This document shows, in pieces, positions 5,609 to 5,915 of a stretch of 5,915 nucleotides of DNA. The position numbers and the translations under genes are program-made. The stretch is from an uncultured Eubacterium sp. (lineage in GTDB: Bacteria > Bacillota_A > Clostridia > Lachnospirales > Lachnospiraceae), in the NCBI GenBank assembly GCA_947653505.1, contig CANTHI010000251.1, forward strand, positions 1 to 5,915, read 5' to 3'. Under the pieces are notes generated by a model that had not been told where the DNA came from, searched no databases, and saw only the letters and a program-made list of their open reading frames with translations. Numbering within the stretch: position 1 is the stretch's first letter; each line of letters opens with the position of its first letter.

Positions 5609-5915
5609 GCTGCAGACGGGGTAAAGCCCCACAGGCGCGAACTTAAGTGGAAATGCAACAATTTACTTAAAAGTGTTGCGTATTGGCTATGAGGACGCCG
5701 GATGGAAGGCGGTGACCTGTCTGCCTGTGACTTTTCCAGAATGCAAGAAGTTCTAAGTATTCTGCATCAACTCTTTGGTACCGGACGGGCGCGACACCTG
5801 GTTCGCTTCTGGCGTTCCGCCAGCAGCTAAAGGTGCCGCTTCGGCTACGCCGCCTGTGTATCGGGCAGAATACTAAGAACTTCTAACCATTCTTCCAACG
5901 TCTCAGGCAGACAGG
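5609..5915 (+). ncRNA. Large structured RNA, possibly raiA-motif type, may continue past the window
   Basis: This stretch of about 300 nt without a gene has extensive complementarity. Local hairpins are GGGG/CCCC (5618-5621/5627-5630), GCAACA/TGTTGC (5655-5660/5674-5679), AGG plus CGCC/GGCG plus CCT (5692-5718), CTGGC/GCCAG (5809-5813/5819-5823) and a UUCG-capped or GCCG/CGGC hairpin (5835-5845). A long rod is formed by 5716-5726/5905-5915 (11 perfect pairs), 5729-5731/5900-5902, 5738-5743/5888-5893 and 5746-5765/5865-5884 (19 of 20 pairs, one A-A mismatch). GCGAAC (5637-5642) can pair with GTTCGC (5801-5806) as a pseudoknot. The size, host type and pseudoknotted architecture suggest the raiA-motif RNA of Firmicutes, but this is a memory-based guess. 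No clear own promoter is visible, so it may be cut from or read with the PHP transcript. Real boundaries are uncertain, and a terminator would lie beyond 5915. Confidence 0.7.

What the first reader, a model, noticed from the sequence alone, without database searches (positions are those of the whole stretch)
5609..5915. Elaborate pseudoknotted RNA directly after the PHP gene
The 307 nt after the stop codon contain no plausible ORF but support a nested rod of about 39 base pairs: 5716-5726/5905-5915, 5729-5731/5900-5902, 5738-5743/5888-5893 and 5746-5765/5865-5884. The rod encloses a branched domain of about 100 nt and follows a 5' domain with several GC-rich hairpins. Chance pairing does not give an 11-bp perfect and a 19-of-20 long-range helix in correct nesting. 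It could be the raiA-motif RNA, whose biochemical role is still unsettled, or a relative.
Basis: partly seen in the sequence, partly recalled or inferred. Interest (0 to 1): 0.7.

Follow-up and report, generated by a model that had tools for sequence, protein, structure and literature searches.

The report
Arm of a paired mobile hairpin
The folded stretch after the PHP gene is real, but it looks like one arm of a repeated, apparently mobile unit made of two inverted hairpins in related gut bacteria, a relative of the poorly understood TwoAYGGAY "RNA" family rather than raiA RNA.

Summary
The rod is real: 39 of 40 listed positions are Watson-Crick and the fold beats all 100 shuffles (z -7.5). 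On 41 copies, 45 of 79 pairs show compensatory changes. It is not raiA (no match), not tied to PHP, and is cut off at 5915; 5609-5683 is not part of it.

It is one arm of a dispersed two-armed element. In chosen loci of four genomes, 25 of 26 neighbours under 3 kb form the same inverted pair; whole-genome lists show 17 of 19. Units are present in one genome and absent in relatives at two loci, once with a passenger gene.

The nearest known family is Rfam TwoAYGGAY, on the minus strand (41.6 bits, cut-off 43; a sister copy 45.1). The name-giving AYGGAY loops are absent (0 of 38), but a mixed pair exists, and TwoAYGGAY copies are inverted pairs too. Mismatch counts favour the minus strand in window-type arms (37:8 events) but no strand in TwoAYGGAY arms (72:84). 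RNA or DNA is open; the mobilising enzyme was not found.

The parts
5684..5692 (+). outer flank motif TGGCTATGA, shared in similar form by most other copies
   Evidence: absent in the G003 copies
5693..5701 (+). conserved outer end GGACGCCGG
   Evidence: reads GGACGATGG or GAACGATGG in several G003 copies
5697..5731 (+). 5' arm of the outer stem; the partner of 5716-5731 is 5900-5915, the partner of about 5697-5715 lies beyond the window
   Evidence: 29 of 36 outer pairs have compensatory changes in A4
5738..5765 (+). 5' side of the core rod (5738-5743 and 5746-5765)
5766..5864 (+). branched inner domain; the two ANGGAY hairpins of TwoAYGGAY are absent here on both strands
   Evidence: (helices 3-6)
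5865..5893 (+). 3' side of the core rod (5865-5884 and 5888-5893)
5900..5915 (+). inner part of the 3' arm of the outer stem, cut by the window end
   Evidence: compare other copies
5732..5899 (-). full-length match to Rfam TwoAYGGAY, 41.6 bits (gathering score 43); 47.5 bits with model R2 at 5731-5900

Best explanation
It is one arm (half) of a two-armed, non-autonomous mobile element of gut Clostridia (mostly Lachnospiraceae-type by record titles), in one superfamily with Rfam TwoAYGGAY. A full unit is: outer motif, ~250-nt structured arm, spacer (usually without a clear gene, sometimes tandem repeats, sometimes a passenger gene), inverted second arm, outer motif. SHOWN: structure kept by compensatory change; many copies; strongly preferred inverted pairing; presence or absence of whole units between relatives at two loci; homology to TwoAYGGAY on the minus strand; arms of one unit more alike than arms of different units. 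INFERRED: units are moved in trans by an enzyme coded elsewhere, which recognises the folded single strand (ssDNA hairpin or RNA) of the arms.
For: Copies: 2, 42, 10 and 40 blastn matches in four genomes, only 40 candidates being scored in the two richest; R1 matches in 11 of 61 relatives. Structure: 45 of 79 pairs with compensatory change, 0 of 500 shuffles as high. Pairing: 20 of 20 neighbours under 3 kb in G009 and G004 loci, 4 of 4 in G011, 1 of 2 in G010. Insertion: truA-rplM and the transporter operon. Unit recurring in six loci of G010. Arm likeness 0.797 against 0.707, 0 of 2000 permutations. Homology. Passenger genes.
Against: No mobilising enzyme and no sure target-site duplication were found. 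Single arms exist (17 of 57). Exceptions to inverted pairing: one - + neighbour in G010 and two same-direction RF01731 neighbours (G008:C23; G280:C1). TwoAYGGAY-type arms show no strand bias (72:84), against recognition of one folded strand. A passenger gene could have entered a spacer later. The first 200 kb of G010 contig 1 hold no arm.
Confidence: 0.65

Rival explanations
1. An ordinary MITE: a palindromic parasite moved by a common transposase through short terminal repeats; the long stems are a by-product of palindromy (repair or hairpin copying) and no folded strand is recognised.
For: Both strands fold; wobbles are rare (59 of 3198 cells, both kinds); no strand bias in TwoAYGGAY-type arms; terminal-repeat-like sequences outside the arms in G010 and G003.
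Against: A conserved branched core with covarying inner helices; 37:8 strand bias in window-type arms; ANGGAY loops on one strand only in TwoAYGGAY-type (27 of 32 against 0 of 32); the outer sequences of G010 and G003 differ although the arms are related.
Confidence: 0.2
2. A trans-acting small RNA from the minus strand that has been spread by mobile DNA; for TwoAYGGAY a CsrA-binding role has been proposed.
For: Minus-strand wobble bias like that of RNase P RNA (47:12 against 22:4); proposal in PMC4333381 (passages).
Against: 0 of 38 window-type copies have ANGGAY hairpins; CsrA not found in 4 of 17 RF01731-positive genomes tested (drafts); tens of copies in inverted pairs are unusual for an sRNA (my judgement).
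Confidence: 0.12
3. An intergenic repeat with a local role, such as an attenuator, insulator or topological site (as argued for BIME/REP repeats).
For: The units looked at lie mostly between genes.
Against: No consistent orientation to flanking genes in the loci inspected by eye; passenger genes; empty sites.
Confidence: 0.07
4. raiA-motif RNA or a relative, read from the plus strand.
For: Size and elaborate fold only.
Against: No RF03072 match; many copies; minus-strand homology; wobble bias against the plus strand.
Confidence: 0.01

Closest known systems
TwoAYGGAY RNA (Rfam RF01731)
   Same: Same overall rod with a branched inner domain and same end motifs; detected on the minus strand (41.6 bits; a sister copy 45.1); same inverted pairing; one mixed pair
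   Different: Window-type arms lack the two AYGGAY hairpin loops (0 of 38); the window copy is 1.4 bits under the gathering score
REPINs (inverted REP pairs moved by RAYT, a Y1 transposase) - recalled
   Same: Two inverted structured units forming one dispersed non-autonomous element
   Different: Arms about ten times longer; spacers may carry genes; Y1 genes do not track copy number
MITEs and mobile insertion cassettes with passenger genes - recalled
   Same: Non-autonomous, multi-copy, inverted ends, occasional passenger genes
   Different: Ends are ~250-nt branched structures kept by covariation; no transposase family identified
raiA-motif RNA / ModT (RF03072)
   Same: Elaborate fold, Bacillota
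   Different: No covariance-model match, other gene context, many copies

Membership tests
TwoAYGGAY (RF01731) | score at or above the gathering score of 43 bits | tested here: inconclusive
   window 41.6 bits (not reached); sister window-type copy L199 45.1 (reached)
TwoAYGGAY (RF01731) | two hairpins with AYGGAY loops | tested here: not met
   0 of 38 window-type cores on either strand; 27 of 32 TwoAYGGAY-type cores have at least one ANGGAY hairpin, 17 two
TwoAYGGAY superfamily (wider than RF01731) | recognised by a profile of TwoAYGGAY-type copies on the same strand, same pair geometry, same end motifs | tested here: met
   R2 47.5 bits on minus against 20.7 on plus; mixed pair L233; end motifs
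raiA-motif RNA (RF03072) | covariance-model match | tested here: not met
   no match up to E 10
CsrA-binding sRNA | ANGGA in hairpin loops | tested here: not met
   (window-type); met by most TwoAYGGAY-type copies
MITE | multi-copy, insertion polymorphism between relatives | tested here: met
MITE | defined terminal inverted repeats, target-site duplication and a transposase in trans | tested here: inconclusive
   terminal-repeat-like sequences in G010 and G003 only; no duplication could be fixed; no enzyme found
REPIN/RAYT | Y1 (RAYT-type) transposase in the genome | tested here: not met
   G002 0 Y1 matches with about 40 copies; G001 54 Y1 matches with 2-3 copies
integron attC / gene cassette | attC core sites and an integron integrase | not tested
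   considered from recall only

The most novel reading that the evidence does not exclude
TwoAYGGAY and the window-type arms are two kinds of recognition arm of an undescribed class of bacterial mobile cassette: passenger DNA held between two inverted ~250-nt folded arms, recognised as folded single strands (ssDNA or RNA) by an unknown enzyme acting in trans, with the two arms of a unit kept alike.
Probability: 0.35. Interest if true: 0.82.

Novelty: new variant of a known kind. Interest (0 to 1): 0.6.

Why it matters
A curated RNA family of unknown role, for which CsrA sequestration was proposed, appears to be half of a mobile two-armed element. That would explain its copy number, warn against taking its covariation as proof of a regulatory RNA, and point to an unidentified enzyme that reads very large folded ends. 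Stem positions where all four Watson-Crick pairs occur among copies (columns 25/230 of A4) make it a good test case for telling DNA-level from RNA-level palindromes.

Tried and rejected
Other Rfam families: only TwoAYGGAY is credible; mir-59, RybB, STnc150, snoU54 and the rest score far below their cut-offs and I take them as chance. Phage and plasmid records: no match for the window stretch, nor in plasmids for a TwoAYGGAY unit. One exact pattern in IMG/VR: 0. Y1 transposase as mobiliser: rejected. PHP-linked element: rejected. A tRNA wobble control was discarded: only 4 tRNAs and a wrong geometry. A first RNase P control was folded on the wrong strand and discarded; the corrected one uses 8 of the 17 loci L303-L319. 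The RNAalifold pair counts for A3 and A4 (A4 plus: 11 G.U, 39 A.C; A4 minus: 86 G.U, 6 A.C; A3 given strand 47:28; A3 opposite 33:25) were not used as evidence because folding one strand picks pairs that favour it. Literature: the word TwoAYGGAY is in 7 records, 5 listed; in the passages I read of these five none mentions mobility or pairing of TwoAYGGAY; further searches gave nothing more on it.

Rows dropped: A2 has 38 rows, the window and 37 of the 42 other copies; A4 has the window and 40 of the 41 copies (L110 left out). One search left out opposite-strand shadows and one weak R2 match (L218 19433, 34.6 bits), and used E <= 1e-3 for G009 and 1e-8 for G004. Match numbers may include opposite-strand shadows.

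Full report
WHAT IS IN THE WINDOW. The 307-nt stretch folds 7.5 standard deviations better than 100 shuffles; its reverse complement does so too (z -6.7), as expected of a long palindrome. No ORF of 60 aa or more overlaps it. Pfam names four of five neighbouring proteins: Leu/Phe-tRNA-protein transferase, a ClpA/ClpB-type ATPase, ClpS and a PHP protein; the fifth has only a match under the cut-off and looks to me like a membrane protein.

NOT raiA. In 326 nt, Rfam gives one credible match: TwoAYGGAY (RF01731), full length, on the MINUS strand, 41.6 bits against a gathering score of 43, E 1.5e-5. raiA is not among the four matches up to E 10.

A REPEAT, NOT A PHP ELEMENT. The closest PHP loci (L001-L004, PHP 76-84% identical) have no copy downstream of PHP; L003 has one on the other side of the gene. 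The genomes of these four loci give 2, 42, 10 and 40 blastn matches, fragments included, with only 40 candidates scored in the two richest. A covariance model of 38 copies (R1) matches in 11 of 61 relatives of G004; seven have 40 or more matches, 45 being the number scored and opposite-strand shadows possibly included; two of the eleven (G005, G008) have only weak matches, probably to the TwoAYGGAY type.

THE STRUCTURE IS REAL. On 41 copies (A4: the truncated window and 40 others), 96.2% of 3198 cells pair, 45 of 79 pairs show a change on both sides, and 368 cells carry one. None of 500 shuffles reaches these three values; the number of further pair types is reached by 34 of 500. Sliding the partners drops pairing to 34-48%. 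The outer stem is hypervariable (29 of 36 pairs with compensatory change) between conserved ends, in most copies TGGCTnyGCGGACGCCGG and CCGGCTGG. The copies are related, so these are not independent events.

PAIRS. In 787 kb of loci taken from G009 and G004 on contigs that hold copies, I counted 57 arms; 20 of 20 neighbours under 3 kb are in the order + then - (window orientation), so 40 of 57 arms are in such pairs. G011 adds 4 of 4 (21 arms in 366 kb); G010 one + - and one - + (5 arms in 393 kb). Total 25 of 26. In the lists of RF01731 matches, neighbours under 3 kb have the same geometry (divergent in that family's orientation) in 14 of 15 cases and 3 of 4 (my count from the printed lists, which are capped); the exceptions, G008:C23 and G280:C1, point the same way. 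Some of these are the same pairs as above. The arms of one unit agree at 79.7% of variable columns, arms of different units at 70.7%; 0 of 2000 random matchings reach this (18 pairs of G004). Core-to-core gaps run from 232 to 2437 bp. Three of four loci tested hold tandem repeats between their arms (45-187 bp units), and one unit (L108) contains the arm's end motif. Of the spacers examined, five hold recognisable or long ORFs: two GNAT acetyltransferases (L109/L253, L196), an HTH protein (L104), a flagellin N-terminal piece (L223) and a 434-aa protein without a Pfam match (L221).

INSERTIONS. At truA-rplM, G004 has a pair just upstream of the rplM promoter; in the five relatives where both genes lie close together on the fetched locus (G001, G006, G007, G009, G011) 196-258 nt separate the aligned ends, and R1 and R2 find no arm there. 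In a sixth (G017) about 1.0 kb separates them; it holds two other ORFs and no arm. Six further loci did not show both genes. In G009, a TwoAYGGAY-type pair and the 434-aa gene lie between an ABC ATPase gene and a permease gene, 3.0 kb apart; in 9 of 10 relatives' loci examined the two genes are adjacent, with 33-361 nt between aligned ends and no arm between them; the tenth (L254) is cut by its contig end. L263 has arm pieces elsewhere on the locus. In G010 an arm-spacer-arm unit of about 0.75 kb recurs in six loci at 81-93% identity, in two of them as separate pieces. I could not fix a target-site duplication.

RELATION TO TwoAYGGAY. The two kinds share end motifs. A model of 32 TwoAYGGAY-type copies (R2) finds the window on the minus strand with 47.5 bits and on the plus strand with 20.7. 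A sister window-type copy passes the gathering score (L199, 45.1 bits). L233 holds a mixed pair, one arm of each type. But the name-giving loops are missing: 0 of 38 window-type cores have an ANGGAY hairpin on either strand, against 27 of 32 TwoAYGGAY-type cores, 17 with two. I therefore place it in the same superfamily and do not file it as a member of RF01731. RF01731 matches occur in 8 of 41 relatives of G004, in 28 of 291 genomes drawn from the class (20 over the cut-off) and in 0 of 14 control genomes.

RNA OR DNA? In window-type arms, mismatches that are wobbles on the minus strand outnumber those that are wobbles on the plus strand 47:12 by cells, 26:8 by columns (p 0.003) and 37:8 by pair-and-genome events (p 1.5e-5); an arm-against-arm alignment of 67 copies gives 123:56. 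RNase P RNA from 8 relatives gives 22:4 on pairs with a Watson-Crick majority and 81:5 on all predicted pairs. So the plus strand is unlikely to be the folding one. Against a simple RNA reading: minus-strand wobbles are rarer (1.5% of cells against 3.5% in RNase P) and TwoAYGGAY-type arms show no bias (72:84, 32 copies). I leave ssDNA and RNA both open.

MECHANISM. Most likely (inference) a non-autonomous unit moved in trans, its arms recognised as folded single strands. Y1 transposases do not track the copies: 0 matches in G002 with about 40 copies, 54 in G001 with 2-3. No other enzyme family was tested.

LITERATURE. TwoAYGGAY stands in the 2010 table as probably RNA and probably not cis-regulatory (table row, PMC2864571), although Rfam types it Cis-reg. 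It was proposed as a CsrA-binding sRNA of Clostridia (passages, PMC4333381), is among 26 Rfam families with improved structures (passage, PMC11701678) and serves as an example in PMC11661157 and PMC7657543 (passages). CsrA was not found in 4 of 17 RF01731-positive genomes tested; these are drafts, so this is weak. Of the raiA/ModT paper PMC11706538 I saw the outline and abstract. Nothing I saw describes TwoAYGGAY as paired or mobile; that is a statement about and the passages named, not about all literature.

Noticed in passing
L205 (G011), truA-rplM intergenic region: A short perfect palindrome beginning GTAACAGTTCAGATAGG, flanked by an 8-bp direct repeat (GTTTTGAA), looks like a tiny MITE at the very site where G004 has the two-armed unit; the same motif borders the arms of G003 and one of G011.
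   Followed up: partly
L180-L185 (G010), outside the arms: The G010 units end in a terminal-repeat-like sequence (GTTACTTTTCAYGGG), best kept on one side.
   Followed up: partly
L110 1517-3458 and L108 1153-1545: Spacers made of tandem repeats of 54-187 bp; in L108 the unit contains the arm's own end motif, as if ends had been duplicated repeatedly.
   Followed up: partly
L085, upstream of the + arm at 1551: The outer motif TGGCTGCGCGGAYG is tandemly repeated outside the arm.
   Followed up: no
L223 16113-16457: A piece of a flagellin N-terminal domain (PF00669, E 6.8e-19) lies between two arms.
   Followed up: no
genomes G002, G003, G004, G006, G007: Several CsrA-family matches per genome (3-6), one of usual score and others weaker and longer.
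   Followed up: no
G010:C1:1-200000 (L322-L331): No arm in 200 kb of this contig, although one search lists 31 RF01731 matches in the genome: copies are unevenly spread.
   Followed up: no
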